64,000 nt of DNA from Chloroflexus sp. Y-396-1 (GTDB taxonomy: Bacteria > Chloroflexota > Chloroflexia > Chloroflexales > Chloroflexaceae): NCBI RefSeq assembly GCF_000516515.1, contig NZ_KI911784.1:1954881-2018880 (forward strand). Direction: 5' to 3'. This document shows, in pieces, positions 17,356-46,314 of the stretch. Position numbers and translations under genes: made by a program. Position 1 is the first letter of the stretch. Each line of letters opens with the position of its first letter. The notes under the pieces were generated by a model that saw nothing but the letters and a program-made list of their open reading frames with translations, ran no database searches and was not told the DNA's origin.

Positions 17356-18168
17356 ATGTCAGCCATTGGCACTCTTAATCAGGCACTGTCCCGTCGTCGA
17401 AGCAATCCTCTGCCGGCAATCTTAATCGGCCTCGGCGTCATCATTACTGCGGTTTTTACAGTGTTTGCTTTCCTTGAAGCCGGTCGTACCGAGCCGGTCG
17501 TTATTCTGGCGCGTGAGGTGCCTTATGGGCAACGCATCAGTGCCGATGATCTCACGGTTGTATTGCTGCCGCGTCATCGACCGGTACAGCTTACCGGAAT
17601 CAGTTCGCCAACGCTGGCTATCGGGCAATATGCCGCCCGACATCTGGCAGTCAACGATCTGTTACAACCATCGATGTTGATGGAACACGCGCCAACACAG
17701 CCGGTCTATCCCAATGGTGAAGCATTGACGCCGGGAATGGTAGCAATGCCATTCAGCACAGAGACGATTGGGCCGTTAACCCATCGCGACCGCATTAATA
17801 TCGGTTTCAACGATCCAAATGGCTCTCCTGATGTGTGCGATCAGGCCCGAAGTGCGGCTGAAGGTCGTCAACCTACGGTCGTGCCACCATCCTCGCCGTT
17901 GCAACCACGCCCTTACGCCTGTCGTTTGCTCAGCGGCGTGCGTGTGCTCTACGTCGATACTGAAGTAGGTACCGCTTATCTTGAACTGACTCCTTATCAG
18001 TCGCATACGCTTTGGGCGTTGCAGGCAGCCGGTCTCCCATTGTGGGGTGAGCGTTACGGGAGTGATTCGCCGGTTTTGCCAGCACTTGACCGGCTCGATA
18101 TTGGGCAGATCACGGTTGAGGAATTGGGAGCCTCAACGACCTCATTATCTGATGAAGCGCAACCGTAA
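17356..18168 (+). CDS. cpaB: Flp pilus assembly protein CpaB (RcpC)
   Basis: 270 residues. One N-terminal transmembrane helix (about 20-40) is followed by an SAF domain (AREVPYGQRISADDLTVVLL, about 48-100) and a CpaB C-terminal region with TAYLELTPYQSHTLWALQAAG. CpaB/RcpC proteins are periplasmic or cell-surface parts of Tad machines. AGAAGGAG precedes the start, and the gene is 24 nt after the TadG-like gene. A Pro/Ser-rich insertion lies near residues 175-190. Confidence 0.85.
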   Translation: MSAIGTLNQALSRRRSNPLPAILIGLGVIITAVFTVFAFLEAGRTEPVVILAREVPYGQRISADDLTVVLLPRHRPVQLTGISSPTLAIGQYAARHLAVNDLLQPSMLMEHAPTQPVYPNGEALTPGMVAMPFSTETIGPLTHRDRINIGFNDPNGSPDVCDQARSAAEGRQPTVVPPSSPLQPRPYACRLLSGVRVLYVDTEVGTAYLELTPYQSHTLWALQAAGLPLWGERYGSDSPVLPALDRLDIGQITVEELGASTTSLSDEAQP

Positions 18169-18287: not shown

Positions 18288-19496
18288 ATGTCCTCGAACT
18301 GGGATACTCTTATGCATCCATCATCGCCGATAGCGGAAGATGGTCAGGCTATCACTGAAGAGTTGCGCATGTTAGTACGCAGTGGGCGTTTCCGCGATGG
18401 TTGGTATCTGCCGCCAACAGAGGCGTTTGCCCGTCTCGGTTTTAGCAGTACCATTCGTTGGCGCGACGTGGCCTGGTACGGCCCACTTGAAATCTGGCGC
18501 GATCCAGAGCATGGCGTCTCTGACATCCTGTTCAACGGTCCGGCCGATTCACCCTTTTTCGTTGTCCAACGCGGTATGATGGTCAACACCGGAGTCATGG
18601 TTCATCCGGCGTGGATCGATTGGACGCAGCGCCAGCTTGTCTGGCGGAGCCACGATATTCCTCCGGATCAACCATTCTCATCATTTATGCAGGGAGTGGT
18701 CGATGGTTTGCGCTATGCAATAACGGATCGGCACGCCTCACCCGCTGGCCCCAGCCTTGCCATTCGGTTACTGCCCGAACGGTGGACGACCATTGATGAT
18801 CTGGTGCAGAGTGCAGTAATTTCACGTGAAGCGAGTGATTTGTTGCTGGCTGCCCTTAACGGTGGTGCATCAATTCTGATCGCCAGTCCAACCGGGAGTG
18901 GTAAGACAACGCTGGCCGCTGCACTCATGCAGGCTATCGGGAAACACATGCGACTGGTCATTATTGAAGATGGTGGTGAGCTGCCGCGCAGTGCAAATAG
19001 CCTGCATATCGAAGCGCCACCTGAAACCGGTGGATTCAGCCGCGCCGTTACCTTTGCGTTACGTCAGAAGCCCACCTACATCATCGTCGGTGAGGTACGT
19101 GGAGGGGAAGCAATGGCGTTGTTGCAGGCTGCTGCGACCGGTCATCCGGGGTTAGGGACGATCCACGCTGCCACAGTACAGGGCGCTCTGCGTAATCTTG
19201 AACGAATGGCACTGATTGGGTTGGCGAATGAAACAACTGGCGCCGGTCAAGCTGCTGCCCAGATTGTGCGCGGTCTGATTACGTCCGATGCGGTCAATTT
19301 GCTGGTTGTGCAAATCGGGCGGACGCCAAACGGCAAGCGTGGAGTGTTGGCTGTTGAAGAGGTTTTGCCCCAGGGTGCGCAGGGGCAGAGTGGTGATCCG
19401 TTTCCAACCAACCCTCTCTTCCGCTATGACCGTGCCAGCGATCGCCTCGCACGCGCCGGTTATGTGAACGCAGCCTGGGGGCTTGGTCGGATGTGA
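18288..19496 (+). CDS. TadA/CpaF-type secretion ATPase, first copy
   Basis: 402 residues, cytoplasmic hexameric ATPase powering pilus assembly. Walker A is ASPTGSGKTT (Lys206), the Asp-box region VIIEDGGELPR, the Walker B-like segment YIIVGEVRGGEA, and the His box GLGTIHAATVQGALRNLERM. The N-terminal domain (1-180) is shorter and more divergent than in standard CpaF. A GGAGG site precedes the ATG. It lies 119 nt after cpaB. A second ATPase of the same family follows after CpaE. Confidence 0.87.
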   Translation: MSSNWDTLMHPSSPIAEDGQAITEELRMLVRSGRFRDGWYLPPTEAFARLGFSSTIRWRDVAWYGPLEIWRDPEHGVSDILFNGPADSPFFVVQRGMMVNTGVMVHPAWIDWTQRQLVWRSHDIPPDQPFSSFMQGVVDGLRYAITDRHASPAGPSLAIRLLPERWTTIDDLVQSAVISREASDLLLAALNGGASILIASPTGSGKTTLAAALMQAIGKHMRLVIIEDGGELPRSANSLHIEAPPETGGFSRAVTFALRQKPTYIIVGEVRGGEAMALLQAAATGHPGLGTIHAATVQGALRNLERMALIGLANETTGAGQAAAQIVRGLITSDAVNLLVVQIGRTPNGKRGVLAVEEVLPQGAQGQSGDPFPTNPLFRYDRASDRLARAGYVNAAWGLGRM

Positions 19497-19564: not shown

Positions 19565-20806
19565 ATGGAACTTATTATCTTTAGCGCCATCGAAGGATTA
19601 CAGGCAGAGGTCGAGCAGTTACGAGACGTAGCCGTGCTGGCGCCATCGCGCATCGATCAGGTCCAGCGCTTGTTGACCGGCGCCCGTCCGCCAGATGCTA
19701 TTTACATTGATGATAGTCGCGGTACTCCCTTGGCCGAGTTGTGGGATATAACCGCTCGCGCCCAGCAAGTTGGCGCACGAGTGATGTTAGGTCTGGCCGG
19801 TCCGGCACGGTCGGCGCTGCCTGATGCGCTGGCCGCCGGTATACCGGCAACTGGTGAACGCAACCCGGCGGTGCTGGCCGACTGGATCGGCGCACAAATT
19901 GGTCGTCGTCGCGGTAGTGGCGTCCACCGCCTGCCGGTCATTGCTATCGGTGCGGCTAAAGGTGGTATCGGGAAGACCTTTGCGACCTGTGTTCTCGCGG
20001 AAGGTCTGCGGCGGCGCGGTCTTGATGTGCTGGTATGGGATAGCGACATCTCGAACCCCGGTCTGGTGCCCGCATTTCGTATTCCGGCCAGTGCGCCATC
20101 GTATCTGCATCTGGTGCAGCGCGGTCCATCACATTGGAATCCGACCAGTATTAAACCGTTTATTTTCCAACCTGAACACACCCGTGCCAATCAGCATGGT
20201 TGGGGACGGATCGACCTTCTCATCGGTTCACATGCTGTTGCCCGCGCCGAAAATGATATACGCTTACCCGATTGGCAAGGGCTGTATCAGGGAATTATCG
20301 CACTTGACGGCTACGATGTGGTGTTGATCGATACTCCGCCCGATTACCTGCGCCGACCATACGCGACGCACGTTTTACAGGCAGGGGGAAGCGTCATTTT
20401 ACCAACACCTCCTGGTGCACGTGAACGGATGGGCGTTGGTCATATGCTCGAACACTTTACCGAACTGGCGCCTGAGCGACTCGAACGTTGTACGCTCCTC
20501 TTTATGGAGCCAGAACGTGGCGTGACCGTCACCGTTGGTATGGTCGCTGAGCTTTTCGCTCGTCGTTATCCACGAGTCGGGAATCTGGGCCTCCTGCCCC
20601 GTGAACCACGATTGGCCAGTCTGGCGGATGAGCACGACGGCTACATCTCGATGCTCGACCTCGGCCCACAGAGCCGCTTCGCACGTGCCGCTCATCAGGT
20701 GGTCGAGGCATTGTGTGCTCTGCCGGCCTGCAACCCCGATTGCCAATGCCTCATGTCGGATGGTGGACGCGCTTGCGTGAGCGGTTACCGGGTCAACGAA
20801 CGTTAG
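19565..20806 (+). CDS. cpaE: CpaE-like MinD/ParA-family ATPase of the pilus locus
   Basis: 413 residues. The N-terminal part (1-115) resembles a receiver-like domain without an obvious phosphorylation site. A MinD-type deviant Walker A follows, AAKGGIGKTF (Lys132, Lys137), then VWDSDISNPGLV and VVLIDTPPDYLRRP. The C-terminus has an unusual Cys cluster (CALPACNPDCQC). CpaE proteins place the Tad machinery at its cell site. It lies between the two TadA-type ATPases. Confidence 0.83.
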   Translation: MELIIFSAIEGLQAEVEQLRDVAVLAPSRIDQVQRLLTGARPPDAIYIDDSRGTPLAELWDITARAQQVGARVMLGLAGPARSALPDALAAGIPATGERNPAVLADWIGAQIGRRRGSGVHRLPVIAIGAAKGGIGKTFATCVLAEGLRRRGLDVLVWDSDISNPGLVPAFRIPASAPSYLHLVQRGPSHWNPTSIKPFIFQPEHTRANQHGWGRIDLLIGSHAVARAENDIRLPDWQGLYQGIIALDGYDVVLIDTPPDYLRRPYATHVLQAGGSVILPTPPGARERMGVGHMLEHFTELAPERLERCTLLFMEPERGVTVTVGMVAELFARRYPRVGNLGLLPREPRLASLADEHDGYISMLDLGPQSRFARAAHQVVEALCALPACNPDCQCLMSDGGRACVSGYRVNER

Positions 20807-20839
20807 CTCCTGCAATCTCATAGTTTATCGGAGGCGATG

Positions 20840-22207
20840 ATGCATCCTGCATACCGACCATTAACGGTTATCGAAGAGGGTGGATTGGCCGATCTGATGC
20901 CACAGCAACAGACTGCTACTGATCTAAAGGGCGCCGTCTTGCAGGCGGCCCGTGATCTCCTGCTCCGCGAACTAAGTCCTGCTCTACTCGATCCAGTTGC
21001 GCCCGCAGCCGAGCGTGATCCAGAAGTACTGCGCGTGCTACGGGCGACAATCGGCAAACAAACTGAGTCTGGTGGGCCCTTGGCCGGATTACCTACCGAT
21101 GATGCCAGTCTGCTCCGTCTCTTTCACGACACGATTGGCTGGGGACCGGCCCAACCATACCTCGATGATGAACGGATTCAAGAGGTTAAGATTATCGGTG
21201 ACCGTATCATGGTTCAGGAAGAGGGCTCGGATTTTACTCTCGCCCCCGAACGCTTCAGCTCACCACGGCAGGCGCTTGATCGGGCACTGGTGTTGGCCTC
21301 ACGTCTGGCTGTACCACTTGATCGTAGCCGACCGCAAGATACCTTGCCGCTGGCGCATGGTACCCGGATGCACGTGACGATCCCACCCTGTACTCCTGAT
21401 GATACTGCCTTGATCTGTATCCGGCGCGGCCGACGTACAGCCTGGACGCTCGAAGACATCCTGCGTCGTGACGCCTGTGATGACACTCTCTTTTCTCTCT
21501 TGCAATTGCTGGTACGTGCTCGTTGTTCGTTTCTGATCGCAGGCGAAACCGGTTGTGGCAAAACAGCGCTGCTTGAGGCGATTGTCAATTCATGGCCAGG
21601 CGAACCCCACGTGATCACCATTGAAGACAACACATTGGAGATAAACGTTCGTCATGCAGCCTGGACACGCGAATTGGTTCAGACCAGCCTCGAACCGCAC
21701 GCTTTTGGTCGCGCTGCACGTGAGGTATTGCGGCAGACGCCATCACTGGTTGCGCCGGGTGAAACCCGTGCTGCTGAAGCTGGTGCGATACTCGCCGTAG
21801 CTGTGAGTGGTCACGCTGTCGTTACCACCATCCACGCTCGCAATGCGTTACGTGCCGTCAGTCGGCTAGCCGATTGTGCAGCGATGCCTGGCGCGTACCT
21901 ATACGAGGGTCGGCGGAATAATGCCCTTGAAGACATTTGCGACAATTTCCATGTCGTGATCCATCTGTCGCGCAGCGCCGGACGTCGCTACATCAATGAG
22001 GTTGCGCTGCTCGATGGCTGTGAGGAGACGACTACCGGGTTGCGGCCGCGGATCGTTCCGCTAGCACGGGCCGAACTAGAGCGGACCGGTGTCCGCTGGC
22101 ATTGCTTAGCGCAGGTGCAGAATGATGAACTAATCTGGAATGGTGATGAAATGGTGATGATCAGACACCGGCCATTCTCAGGCAACGTCTGGCAATATTC
22201 AAGCTAA
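20840..22207 (+). CDS. TadA/CpaF-type ATPase, second copy, frameshifted near its C-terminus
   Basis: 455 residues as read. Walker A is AGETGCGKTA (Lys241), followed by VITIEDNTLEI, the Walker B-like segment APGETRAAEA and the His box TTIHARNALRAVSR. The start at 20840 has GGAGG 5 nt upstream; the ATG one codon earlier is too close. The frame ends at 22207 shortly after a perfect 11-bp tandem duplication (22139-22160). Removing one copy joins this frame directly to the open frame up to 22857, giving one protein of about 668 residues. The ATPase core is intact in the short form. Whether the tail is needed is unknown. Confidence 0.85.
   Translation: MHPAYRPLTVIEEGGLADLMPQQQTATDLKGAVLQAARDLLLRELSPALLDPVAPAAERDPEVLRVLRATIGKQTESGGPLAGLPTDDASLLRLFHDTIGWGPAQPYLDDERIQEVKIIGDRIMVQEEGSDFTLAPERFSSPRQALDRALVLASRLAVPLDRSRPQDTLPLAHGTRMHVTIPPCTPDDTALICIRRGRRTAWTLEDILRRDACDDTLFSLLQLLVRARCSFLIAGETGCGKTALLEAIVNSWPGEPHVITIEDNTLEINVRHAAWTRELVQTSLEPHAFGRAAREVLRQTPSLVAPGETRAAEAGAILAVAVSGHAVVTTIHARNALRAVSRLADCAAMPGAYLYEGRRNNALEDICDNFHVVIHLSRSAGRRYINEVALLDGCEETTTGLRPRIVPLARAELERTGVRWHCLAQVQNDELIWNGDEMVMIRHRPFSGNVWQYSS
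22139..22160. repeat. Perfect 11-bp tandem duplication (AATGGTGATGA x2)
   Basis: Two adjacent identical 11-bp units, 22139-22149 and 22150-22160, inside the second TadA-type ATPase gene. As 11 is not a multiple of three, the duplication shifts the frame. Deleting one unit gives the reading IWNGDDQTPAILRQ across the junction. Confidence 0.95.
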
Positions 22208-22857
22208 GCGAACGTCCACGGGCAGTCGCCAGTAGTCGGGCGATTGTCGAAGATGCTCTGACTCAGGCTGCCCTTGCTCGTCAAACCGGTGCCCCTGAAC
22301 GAGCGCTGGCAATCTTACGACGAGCCTGGACCGAACGCAGTGATGAGCGTCTGGCTCAAGCTGCCCGGCAGGCGCTATTGATGATGCCTGTACAGGCACA
22401 TCAGGCAACGACGGCTGCTCGTGAAACGTATGAACAGATTACAGGTGCGTTGAACAGCCGCCATTGGGATCGCGCAGCTGCATTGTATGCTGGGCTTCAT
22501 GCCGACCTCGAACGGTACGCAGCGTTTTCTCCTCCTGGTGGGTGGTCAGTGCTAGCAAACACTATCGCAGTTGCTCAACAAACTGACCGTGATGCACGGG
22601 CTACTGTTGAACGTGCCGATCAAGCGTTACAACAGGGCCGTGCCCGTGATGCGCTCGATCTTCTGATCAATCTTGATCCAGGCCGACTTAGTGATGAAAT
22701 GGCGCTGGCGTTGTTGCGTACTCGCTACGCTGCCCTGAATGCTCTGATCGCAACCGGTGAGGTTAGCTCGGCAGCTTTGATACCGGTTGCTGCGGCGCTG
22801 CGGATGCGCGAGGCTGGATTGAACGGGCAAGAGGGTGGATCACTCCCCGTCGGTTAA
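22150..22857 (+). pseudogene. Out-of-frame C-terminal extension of the second TadA-type ATPase
   Basis: An open frame continues from 22150 to TAA at 22857 with no ATG, GTG or TTG until 22378-22381. The region before that is clearly coding in character (Ala/Leu/Arg-rich helices such as GAPERALAILRRAWTE). A separate gene starting at 22378 or 22381 would be a 158-159-residue protein, but would leave the preceding 76 codons unexplained. The product is helical, with TPR-like character (QQGRARDALDLLINLDPG). The simplest view is that it is the tail of the ATPase, cut off by the 11-bp duplication. Confidence 0.75.
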
Positions 22858-23044: not shown

Positions 23045-23971
23045 ATGCCTGCTCTCGATACCCTTACCCATCCAGAGACGGCCTGGTTATTACGGGCCGC
23101 ACCGGCTCTGTTGGCCGCATTGATTACTATGACGGCAACATTTATGTTCTGTCAACCGTTGGCTCAATTCCTGAACAGTCTACACCGGTCTCGTCTGGTG
23201 GCCGGTTTCGATCCGGCACTGACCTGGCGACCGCGGCTCTTAGAAACGCAAACAGCGTTGTTGCTGGCAGGGAGTGCAGCAACCCTTAGCAGTGTTGTGC
23301 TTGGATGGATCGGTTCCATCTGGCTTGCGCTGGCTGCTGCGCCGACTGTGGCCGCGCTGGTAGTCCGGCTCGGATTTACCTTCGCTACATACCGTTACAA
23401 TCACCAACTGGAACGTGAATTAACGCCAGCCATTGGTCGACTCAGCGCACTGTTGAGTGGCGGTCTAGGGCTGCGCACTGCCTTAGAACGTATTCTGGCT
23501 GATACGCCAAACGGTCCGCTGCGCAACGAATGGATGTGGCTCATCCAGCAACAGGGGACGCCACTAGCCGATGGCAGTATTGCCACGCTTCGTCAGGTCA
23601 TTGCTGCCCTGGCTGCACAAACCTCCAATTCGCGCCACGAGACGCTCCTCAACCATCTGGCCGTCGTTGCCGATCAACCGCAAGACCTGCAAGCACGGCG
23701 CTGTGCGGCGGCGTATGCTGCATTACAGGCGTCTGAACGACGACGCGAAGAGGCGTTGACCGAACTGGCTCAGATGCGTTACAGCGGTCTGGCTGTTGGG
23801 GGAGCAGGCTGCCTGATGGCGTTCTATCTCCTCACAACCCAATGGGAACGGGTGCGGGTGGCATACAGTTCACCGCTGGGTATGTTCTTTGCGGTTATTG
23901 TCGCGCTCGCTTTGCTGGCTCCGATCATCGGTGGTTTCTGGCTCTCGCGGGTCGAGGATGTTGATTACTAA
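23045..23971 (+). CDS. tadB: TadB-like integral membrane protein (type II secretion F domain)
   Basis: 308 residues with hydrophobic helices near 15-40, 75-120, 245-265 and 275-300. The cytoplasmic middle contains the GspF/TadB-type segment ELTPAIGRLSALLSGGLGLRTALERI. TadB and TadC form the inner-membrane platform that works with the ATPase. GGAGG precedes the ATG at 23045. It is 187 nt after the end of the ATPase extension. Confidence 0.83.
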   Translation: MPALDTLTHPETAWLLRAAPALLAALITMTATFMFCQPLAQFLNSLHRSRLVAGFDPALTWRPRLLETQTALLLAGSAATLSSVVLGWIGSIWLALAAAPTVAALVVRLGFTFATYRYNHQLERELTPAIGRLSALLSGGLGLRTALERILADTPNGPLRNEWMWLIQQQGTPLADGSIATLRQVIAALAAQTSNSRHETLLNHLAVVADQPQDLQARRCAAAYAALQASERRREEALTELAQMRYSGLAVGGAGCLMAFYLLTTQWERVRVAYSSPLGMFFAVIVALALLAPIIGGFWLSRVEDVDY

Positions 23972-24078
23972 TGTAGCCCCATCGTTAACCCAGGGTGGGT
24001 GTGCAACCTGTTCGATTCGGAAGTGGTGTAGCGTCAGAAGTCATCGTTTCTGTGAGAGCTACTTGTCAAGGAGTTTGT

Positions 24079-24828
24079 ATGTCGCATATCCTGTCAATTT
24101 CTACCGCTCCGGCACTCTTGGCCGCCTTGAGTGGTGCATTGTTGGCTGCTCTGGGTGTGGTACTTCGTCGTCAACCGGCTTCAACCAAACCTCTTAATGA
24201 ACGGCAACGTCTGATCATTGGGCAAAGTAGTGGTATTTTCCTCGCACTGATCTGTTTTGGCGCCTCACTCAGTGGTGGTATCTTCTGGATCGCACTTGGC
24301 CTGGCAGCGTATCTAGCATTTGGGATGGTATGGGCACGCCAGCCCCAACGCAGGCGCGCACGCACTGAACGTGAGCTGCGTCAGCTTACACCGGGTTTAA
24401 TCGGGTTTATTCGGGTCGCGTTAGGGAGCTTTGAGGCGCCCAGTATGCTCTTGCGACGCTACTGTACACAGGCAACGCCACGTCAGGCAGCGATGCGTGA
24501 AGTCGTAGCTGCTGCTCTGTCCCTGAGTGAAGAGCAACGGATGCGGCCCTTTGCAGCCCTGGCCGAGATCGCACGCTGCTATCGCTGTCGGGAGCTAATC
24601 GACGTTACTGCGGCGTTGGCTCAGGCCGAAGCCGAGGGGACACCGGTTGAGATGGTGTTGGCCGCTCAACAACAGACGCTCGAAGCGTTGCTGCAAGGCG
24701 AGTTTCGCCGCCTCATTCGTCGGCGCACCGTGTACCTGCTCTTGCTGGCAGCCATCAGTCTGGTGGTGGGGATTTTACTCAACTTACTGTTCGTTATGGT
24801 TGTCGGGAGTAATGTGTTGTCCTTTTGA
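24079..24828 (+). CDS. tadC: TadC-like integral membrane protein
   Basis: 249 residues. Helices are near 10-30, 50-85 and 220-248, with a cytoplasmic GspF-type segment (TERELRQLTPGLIGFIRVALGSFEAP and ALAQAEAEGTPVEMVL). The start at 24079 has AAGGAG 5-6 nt upstream. A longer frame from 23995 lacks a ribosome site. It is the last gene of the Tad cluster. No prepilin peptidase and no secretin gene is seen here. Confidence 0.82.
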   Translation: MSHILSISTAPALLAALSGALLAALGVVLRRQPASTKPLNERQRLIIGQSSGIFLALICFGASLSGGIFWIALGLAAYLAFGMVWARQPQRRRARTERELRQLTPGLIGFIRVALGSFEAPSMLLRRYCTQATPRQAAMREVVAAALSLSEEQRMRPFAALAEIARCYRCRELIDVTAALAQAEAEGTPVEMVLAAQQQTLEALLQGEFRRLIRRRTVYLLLLAAISLVVGILLNLLFVMVVGSNVLSF

Positions 24829-26440: not shown

Positions 26441-26479
26441 AGTTCGTATAAACATATCTTGCCCAGGAGGATCATTGCT

Positions 26480-26989
26480 GTGAAGTCGCTGATACAGGCT
26501 CGTTGGATAACGCCATTTCTGGTTGCTACTGTTATGTTAGTGCTTGATCAACTATCAAAGCGCTGGATCGTAGCACAGCTCGGCCCTGAGCCAATGACTC
26601 GCTTTATTCCGTTGGTCGGTGATAACATTCGATTAGCGTATTCACATAATACCGGTATCGCTTTTAGCCTATTCCAGGGCCAGTCTGATGTCTTGACAAT
26701 TGTAGCGCTGATCATCATCGCTGGCGCCGTATACCTTTACGTTACGCAATTGCCTCATCGGCGTCGACTGGTACAGATTGCAATGGGTCTGATTCTTGGT
26801 GGAGCGTTTGGGAATGTCATTGATCGTATTCGTCTCGGCTATGTCGTCGATTTTATTCAGGTAGGCTGGTTTCCGATTTTCAACCTGGCCGATAGTTCTA
26901 TCACCGTTGGAGCTGCGCTTTTAATGTTGCAGTACGCGCTCGATGAAGTCGCTTGGCGGCGAACCCGGCAGGCGATGATTTCACAATAG
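26480..26989 (+). CDS. lspA: Lipoprotein signal peptidase, first of two tandem copies
   Basis: 169 residues, four transmembrane helices, aspartyl peptidase that cleaves prolipoproteins after lipidation. All LspA motifs are present: LDQLSKRW, HNTGIAFSLF, GNVIDRI (Asp115), GYVVDFIQVG and FNLADSSI (Asp138). The GTG at 26480 is chosen because AGGAGG lies 9 nt upstream. The in-frame TTG at 26459 would place that site inside the gene. A second lspA begins 2 nt after its stop. Confidence 0.93.
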   Translation: MKSLIQARWITPFLVATVMLVLDQLSKRWIVAQLGPEPMTRFIPLVGDNIRLAYSHNTGIAFSLFQGQSDVLTIVALIIIAGAVYLYVTQLPHRRRLVQIAMGLILGGAFGNVIDRIRLGYVVDFIQVGWFPIFNLADSSITVGAALLMLQYALDEVAWRRTRQAMISQ

Positions 26990-26991
26990 TT

Positions 26992-27563
26992 ATGCACTCT
27001 CGCTGGATACTACTAGCTCTAGTTGCCGCGCCAGTCTTCGCCCTTGACCAATTGAGTAAGGTTTGGATCACCGACATTCTGTTGCGTAGTAATCAACCTA
27101 TTCCTTTGCTGTTCGATTGGGTGCAACTGGTGTATCACGAGAATACCGGTGTCGCCTTTGGCCTCTTTCCCGATCATGGTGGTTGGCTGTCGGTGGGAGC
27201 CGGATTGGTGTTATTGTTGCTTGCTTTTACGTATCAATATCTGCTCCCTGCCGAGTCAAGCTGGGTGACGACAGCGGTAGGAATGATCTTTGGTGGCGGA
27301 TTGTCAAATCTGCTTGATCGGATTCGGCAAGGTTACGTAGTTGACTTTATCCAATTTGGTTGGTGGCCAGTATTTAATCTGGCCGACGGAGCGATTACAC
27401 TCGGCGTAACAGCACTAGCATTCCACATTATCTTTATCGGTGATGAACCAGCGCCACCCGAACCAGAACCGGTCGATGATGGTTTACTCAGCGAGCTATT
27501 GAGTCGTGATCTGGAGCCAACATCAACTGCCTCATCGCTTCATCGCAACTCGGAGTCATCGTC

Positions 27564-27567
<4 letters not shown>
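26992..27567 (+). CDS. lspA: Lipoprotein signal peptidase, second tandem copy
   Basis: 191 residues. It retains all motifs: LDQLSKVW, ENTGVAFGLF, SNLLDRI, GYVVDFIQFG and FNLADGAI, so both catalytic Asp residues are kept. It differs in a hydrophilic C-terminal tail of about 50 residues rich in Pro, Glu and Ser. The ATG at 26992 follows the stop of the first copy by 2 nt and has no clear ribosome site, so translation is probably coupled. It overlaps rluD by 4 nt (ATGA). Confidence 0.9.
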
Positions 27568-33745: not shown

Positions 33746-34717
33746 GTGACACATCCGCAACGCGCTTTGTTTGCGCTAATGCCCGTGCTGGCACTATTAC
33801 TGTTGGTAACATTAATGGCTGCCACACCGCCTGCTTCGCCGCCAACATTAAGGGCGGTGGCGTTATCGCCATTAGAAACTGCCACGGCAGCACCTACCGC
33901 TTCTGCAACGCCGAATCCATCACCTCAACCGTTACCAACCCTCACCCCAACCTTAGCCCGTCGTGAATTTATCGAGTCGTATGAAGTGAAGGTTGCGCCC
34001 ACCAGTTTCTTACCCGGACGTGGGCCGGTTTTACCGGGCGAGTTTGTCTACGCTGGTCGGCGTCTTGATTTTTACGTGGGGCGTGGTACGTTTAGCGCCG
34101 ATCAGGTGCGCGACATCGCGGTGAAGGCTGAATATGCACTGGGATACTTGCAGCGCCGGTTTGATGTTGAACTAACCGAGCGTGTCTCGGTCGGCTTCTA
34201 TAATCCGGTGTTAGCGCCAACGCACGACACGCGTGGGATTGCGTATACCCACGACCGGACAAATATCCGTATCTTTTACCGATCTGATGAAGATCCCTAT
34301 AATGCACTGGTCATTTTGACCCATGAATTAGCGCATGCTTTACAGGCCGAGGCATACAGTCGTGAAGCGCAGGCGCGAGCTGATCTGGTCTTGCTTGAAG
34401 GTCTAGCGACCTGGATTTCAGGCGAATACTGGCTGAGCCGCTCTGAATCCTCTTCATTTCAGGCGCGTGCCCGTGAGTTGTATCAGGCTGGTTATCGGGG
34501 GAATCTGGCAGCATTTGCCAACAGTGCCAATTCAATGGCTGCCTACGAAATGTGGGCTGGCTTTGTCGATTACCTGGCTCGCACCTACGGCTGGGACAAG
34601 TTTAACGAACTGTATGCAAATGGTCGGGGACGAGCGCCTAGTTCGGCTGATTACCGAGGCATCTACGGCAAGAGCTTTCAAGAGCTTTACACCGAGTGGT
34701 ACGCTACCCTGCGCTAA
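33746..34717 (+). CDS. Exported gluzincin-type zinc metallopeptidase
   Basis: 323 residues. An N-terminal hydrophobic segment (about 9-28) acts as signal or anchor, followed by a Thr/Pro-rich linker. The catalytic motif is THELAHALQ (His193, Glu194, His197) with a downstream Glu218 in LLEGLATWISGEYW, the arrangement of gluzincins such as M1/M61-like peptidases. The C-terminal helical part ends in SFQELYTEWYATLR, as in the peptidase MA-like family. The GTG at 33746 has AGGAG 8 nt upstream; the TTG eight codons earlier does not. Substrate unknown. Confidence 0.83.
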   Translation: MTHPQRALFALMPVLALLLLVTLMAATPPASPPTLRAVALSPLETATAAPTASATPNPSPQPLPTLTPTLARREFIESYEVKVAPTSFLPGRGPVLPGEFVYAGRRLDFYVGRGTFSADQVRDIAVKAEYALGYLQRRFDVELTERVSVGFYNPVLAPTHDTRGIAYTHDRTNIRIFYRSDEDPYNALVILTHELAHALQAEAYSREAQARADLVLLEGLATWISGEYWLSRSESSSFQARARELYQAGYRGNLAAFANSANSMAAYEMWAGFVDYLARTYGWDKFNELYANGRGRAPSSADYRGIYGKSFQELYTEWYATLR

Positions 34718-45980: not shown

Positions 45981-46314
45981 ACTAGCATCTCCAGAATAGT
46001 TCGGGGAACGATGGCGAGCAACTGATGACCCCCTCACCATCCCCCCTAGCCCCCTTCCTCTTCCACACGAGGCGAGGAAGGGGGAGGTTGTCCCCTCACC
46101 ATCCCCCTGGCCCCTTCCTCTTCCACACGAGGCGAGGAAGGGGGGGATGAGCGGAGCAGGGGCGATTCTGTGACTGTCGACCATACCGCATTCATGCGCC
46201 ACCCCTCTCCCGCAGCGCGGGAGAGGGGCCGGGGGTGAGGGCGACCCCCTCACGAAAGGTCGCACGGGTACGAGACATGCCCAATGAGAAAGCTGGGTTT
46301 TTGATCAGGCTCTT
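45981..46314. repeat. Dispersed repeat family A, copy A4, with internal tandem duplication
   Basis: The right end has the family sequence AATGAGAAAGCTGGG and TTTTTGATCAGGCTCT (to 46314). The left end is poorly preserved. The C-rich hairpin core occurs three times. Two copies of a unit of about 60 bp with CTTCCACACGAGGCGAGGAA stand in tandem at about 46031-46147, and a third hairpin CCCGCAGCGCGGG follows at 46209-46221. Confidence 0.65.

What the first reader, a model, noticed from the sequence alone, without database searches (positions are those of the whole stretch)
22139..22160. 11-bp tandem duplication cuts off the C-terminal third of the second Tad ATPase
Seen: a perfect AATGGTGATGA x2, and removal of one unit fuses 20840-22207 with the frame up to 22857 (2007 nt, divisible by three). 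The downstream frame has no start for its first 76 codons. Inferred: the native protein is about 668 residues. The direct repeat could also expand and contract, making it a reversible on/off switch of the tail, that is, phase variation of a pilus motor.
Basis: partly seen in the sequence, partly recalled or inferred. Interest (0 to 1): 0.72.

Follow-up and report, generated by a model that had tools for sequence, protein, structure and literature searches.

The report
Recent frameshift in a pilus motor gene
In this Chloroflexus genome an 11-letter stretch copied twice in a row has knocked a Tad-pilus motor gene out of frame and cut off its helical tail, whereas almost all relatives carry one unbroken gene; it looks like an ordinary recent mutation, with no evidence so far of an on/off switch.

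Summary
AATGGTGATGA stands twice at 22139-22160. Reading past one unit joins the 456-codon ORF (20837/20840-22207) to the downstream frame, giving 668 residues. The window lies in a Chloroflexus chromosome (4.89 Mb, one contig). Six of seven other Chloroflexus species and about 30 further Chloroflexales carry this gene as one ORF of about 656-680 residues with one unit-length at the site; the seventh has an unrelated frameshift far upstream. The tail is never a separate gene and has no second copy in this genome. The tail frame is free of further stops and as constrained as in relatives, so the duplication is recent. A model of the C. islandicus homologue puts the break between the CpaF/TadA-like core and a confident TPR-like helical tail. 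The likely product is an ATPase core without its tail; the tail frame has no start codon for 76 codons and no -1 slippery site. Phase variation is possible in principle (pneumococcal capsule genes switch through short tandem duplications), but nothing here shows it, the repeat is absent from relatives, and no read data were available. Ordinary mutation (or, less likely, an assembly error); low to moderate interest.

The parts
22139..22149 (+). first 11-bp unit AATGGTGATGA
22150..22160 (+). second 11-bp unit; absent from all aligned relatives
20837..22207 (+). second Tad ATPase, truncated ORF (ATG at 20837 or 20840), CpaF/TadA-like core; the last 18 codons or so before the stop are out-of-frame sequence
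22150..22857 (+). orphaned tail frame, 235 codons, TPR-like helical tail; no start codon until TTG 22378
18288..19496 (+). first Tad ATPase (TadA/CpaF type), intact
19565..20806 (+). TadZ/CpaE-like P-loop protein, intact
17356..18168 (+). CpaB/RcpC-like SAF-domain protein, intact
23045..23971 (+). TadB-like inner-membrane platform protein, intact
23995..24828 (+). TadC-like inner-membrane platform protein, intact (named by position and similarity to relatives; no Pfam hit)

Best explanation
A recent, ordinary loss-of-tail mutation. Slipped replication duplicated 11 bp inside a Tad-pilus ATPase gene that is natively one ORF of about 668 codons. The frameshift ends translation about 18 codons after the break, so the cell most likely makes a complete CpaF-like ATPase core without its C-terminal helical (TPR-like) tail, and the tail is not translated. 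Shown: the duplication, the single-gene state in relatives, where the break falls relative to the domains. Inferred: slippage as the cause, loss of the tail's function (probably docking to the pilus platform or a partner), and a partly or wholly impaired second motor. The change can in principle revert by loss of one unit, at a low rate.
For: Repeat and frames. Relatives have one ORF: open frames of 665-677 codons in six Chloroflexus species at 87-88% identity and 660-828 in other Chloroflexales. A codon alignment shows no insertion at the site in any of the ten relatives displayed, six of them Chloroflexus, and the C. aurantiacus-sized genome is also continuous there. No second tail copy in the genome. 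Tail selection in this copy (NG86 dN/dS 0.075-0.13 where computable) lies in the range among intact relatives (0.05-0.14), and there are no further stops, so the break is recent. Neighbouring genes are not split relative to C. islandicus. The break site maps just after W433 of the C. islandicus homologue, between a beta region (372-433) and helices 441-661 with pLDDT mostly 85-96. CpaF-like similarity ends near residue 398. No -1 slippery heptamer and no start for 76 codons.
Against: Only one assembly of this species is held and reads were not available, so an assembly or consensus error is not excluded. Whether the tail-less protein is stable or active was not tested.
Confidence: 0.8

Rival explanations
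1. Phase variation: the two-unit repeat contracts and re-expands, switching the ATPase tail on and off within the population.
For: The unit length is not a multiple of three and loss of one unit restores the frame. Short tandem duplications in capsule genes cause reversible phase variation in Streptococcus pneumoniae (Waite 2001, 2003, cited in PMC4022640).
Against: Only two units; the repeat is not conserved in any relative; PMC4022640 puts reversion for insertions of up to 9 bp at no more than about 1e-5, and re-duplication from a single unit should be rarer still (inference). No read or population data.
Confidence: 0.06
2. Assembly or sequencing artefact: the real chromosome has one unit.
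For: A single assembly; every relative has one unit.
Against: An exact 11-bp duplication is not the usual homopolymer error; the genome is one contig, 99.98% complete; neighbouring genes are unbroken; in 424 kb sampled no other perfect tandem duplication of 10 bp or more was seen to break a gene.
Confidence: 0.12
3. Genuine two-gene state or programmed recoding: core and tail are made as separate or frameshifted products.
For: The tail frame is intact; internal ATGs exist at 22381 and 22384.
Against: No relative has the tail as its own gene; no start for 76 codons; no -1 slippery heptamer; a product from 22378 would lack the first third of the tail.
Confidence: 0.02

Closest known systems
CpaF/TadA pilus ATPase (e.g. 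PDB 8rjf, 9e24)
   Same: The core (profile positions 92-398) matches CpaF by sequence (E about 1e-22) and is the top structural match (Z 17.6 over 330 residues, but rmsd 14.3); Walker A GETGCGKT and the TTIHA motif are present.
   Different: It carries a roughly 220-residue TPR-like tail with no sequence match in the PDB and stands beside a second, shorter TadA-like ATPase in the same operon.
Phase variation by short tandem duplications in pneumococcal capsule genes (Waite 2001, 2003)
   Same: Spontaneous short tandem duplication that shifts the reading frame and can be reversed by losing a unit.
   Different: There reversion was measured; here there is one genome and no measured reversion, in a phototroph's pilus gene.
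Other broken copies of this ATPase: C. aurantiacus-sized genome G003 (one T short at about codon 130) and Oscillochloris sp. ZM17-4 (L054, deletion running into tadB)
   Same: Same gene interrupted.
   Different: Different lesions at different places; not repeat-based at this site; some may be assembly errors.

Membership tests
Tad/CpaF (TadA) secretion ATPase | T2SSE/CpaF-type RecA ATPase domain with Walker A | tested here: met
   Pfam T2SSE E 7.9e-25; TIGR03819 E 1.6e-32, below its curated cut-off; PDB CpaF E 1.6e-22
Tad/CpaF (TadA) secretion ATPase | Lies in a tad operon (TadE, CpaB, TadZ, TadB, TadC) | tested here: met
Tad/CpaF (TadA) secretion ATPase | Hexameric, active ATPase driving pilus assembly | not testable with these tools
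   biochemistry needed
Phase-variable contingency locus | Repeat whose copy number sets the reading frame | tested here: met
   two units out of frame, one unit in frame
Phase-variable contingency locus | Repeat kept, or variable in copy number, among relatives | tested here: not met
   relatives have a single, diverged unit-length
Phase-variable contingency locus | High-frequency reversible switching in a population | not testable with these tools
   no reads or strains available

The most novel reading that the evidence does not exclude
The duplication is a live, reversible switch that toggles the tail of a second Tad motor, so that filaments alternate between two pilus or gliding states.
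Probability: 0.05. Interest if true: 0.55.

Novelty: new member of a known kind. Interest (0 to 1): 0.2.

Why it matters
It is a natural tail-deletion allele of a Tad ATPase whose tail was found here only in Chloroflexales (one class was searched), a group whose gliding has been proposed to depend on its pili, with only Tad genes present (PMC7332563). The strain could serve as a ready-made test of what the tail does. It also warns that automatic annotation would give this gene a shortened, misleading product.

Tried and rejected
Conserved two-gene architecture: rejected, the tail is fused in relatives. Tail supplied from elsewhere in the genome: rejected, a single match. Programmed -1 frameshifting: no slippery heptamer. 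Hot spot of breakage in this gene: other lesions exist (G003, L054, L057), but control genes in the same loci are also sometimes split (TadB in L032, TadC in L043, CpaB in L057), so no clear enrichment. YN00 estimates for the tail were erratic and NG86 was used. The 10-bp repeat at 34669 was checked: it reads in frame through an open gene, a chance repeat. Sequence searches of the tail in the PDB found nothing; Pfam gave only weak TPR-type hits below cut-off. Literature searches for two-ATPase Tad systems found no paper.

Full report
What is there. The window holds two perfect copies of AATGGTGATGA at 22139-22160. The ORF that enters them (ATG at 20837 or 20840) stops at 22205-22207. Reading with one unit joins it to the frame that ends at 22857 and gives 668 residues. 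The downstream frame has no start codon until TTG 22378, 76 codons after its last stop.

How unusual the repeat is. In 424 kb of this genome there is one 11-bp perfect tandem repeat, against about 0.3 expected by a Markov model. The other perfect repeats of 10 bp or more that were inspected lie outside clear genes, keep the frame, or read through an open gene as chance repeats. The repeat length is therefore not the point; the broken frame is.

Where it is. The window is part of a 4,890,986-base single-contig genome. The closest relatives are Chloroflexus species; named loci include C. islandicus, and G003 and G005 have the sizes I recall for C. aurantiacus J-10-fl and C. aggregans (from memory). 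The surrounding operon is a Tad pilus cluster: TadE-like proteins, a CpaB-like SAF protein, a first TadA-like ATPase, a TadZ-like protein, this second ATPase, TadB and TadC.

Relatives. Six of seven other Chloroflexus genomes have this gene as one open frame of 665-677 codons at 87-88% identity to the core. The seventh, G003, lacks one T near codon 130 but is continuous from residue 129 through 660, across the site. About 30 more Chloroflexales genomes have one frame of 660-828 codons. In the codon alignment no displayed relative has an insertion at the site. In a class-level search the tail was found in 41 of 158 genomes; where it is not in one long frame, this duplication, G003's frameshift, or a low-completeness, fragmentary genome is involved. 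This genome has only one copy of the tail.

Age. Tail dN/dS (NG86) between this genome and relatives is 0.075-0.13 where computable, like that among intact relatives (0.05-0.14), and the tail frame has no other stop. The break is recent. Comparison with C. islandicus shows no other split gene across the neighbouring 20 kb, which speaks against a poor local assembly but does not exclude an error at this one site.

What is lost. A profile of homologues matches solved CpaF structures over positions 92-398. AlphaFold2 on the C. islandicus homologue (mean pLDDT 75, pTM 0.46, so the arrangement of domains is uncertain) gives a beta region at 372-433 and a confident helical tail from 441 on. The tail resembles TPR solenoids, but helical repeats match many things, so this is a fold type and not a family. 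The duplication falls right after the residue equivalent to W433, at the boundary. The truncated protein thus keeps the whole ATPase core and loses the whole tail. That the tail docks to a partner is inference from its fold type.

Switch or scar. Short tandem duplications in pneumococcal capsule genes do give reversible phase variation; PMC4022640, citing Waite 2001 and 2003, puts reversion for insertions up to 9 bp at no more than about 1e-5. By that precedent this allele could revert now and then. Nothing indicates a selected switch: two units only, no repeat in relatives, no population data. I rate a live switch at about 5-6%, an artefact at about 12%, and an ordinary recent mutation at about 80%.

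Other breaks in the same gene. G003 and Oscillochloris sp. ZM17-4 (L054) carry different lesions, and a low-coverage MAG (L057) another. Neighbouring tad genes are also sometimes split in other assemblies, so I do not claim repeated loss.

Noticed in passing
L058:12294-14350 (G003, C. aurantiacus-sized genome): About 2 kb of repeated, apparently non-coding sequence lies between the CpaB-like gene and the first Tad ATPase, where the window has about 120 bases.
   Followed up: partly
L016:2380-2460 (G003): The same ATPase gene is one T short in a T run near codon 130 in another Chloroflexus species.
   Followed up: partly
L054:10001-11712 (Oscillochloris sp. ZM17-4): A deletion appears to remove the end of this ATPase and the start of tadB; real or a scaffold error.
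   Followed up: partly
26459-27567: Two adjacent ORFs that look alike (about 45% identity across them in relatives) and, by eye, resemble lipoprotein signal peptidases.
   Followed up: no
46030-46144: A 60-base unit repeated about twice, rich in CCCCT/GGAAGG.
   Followed up: no
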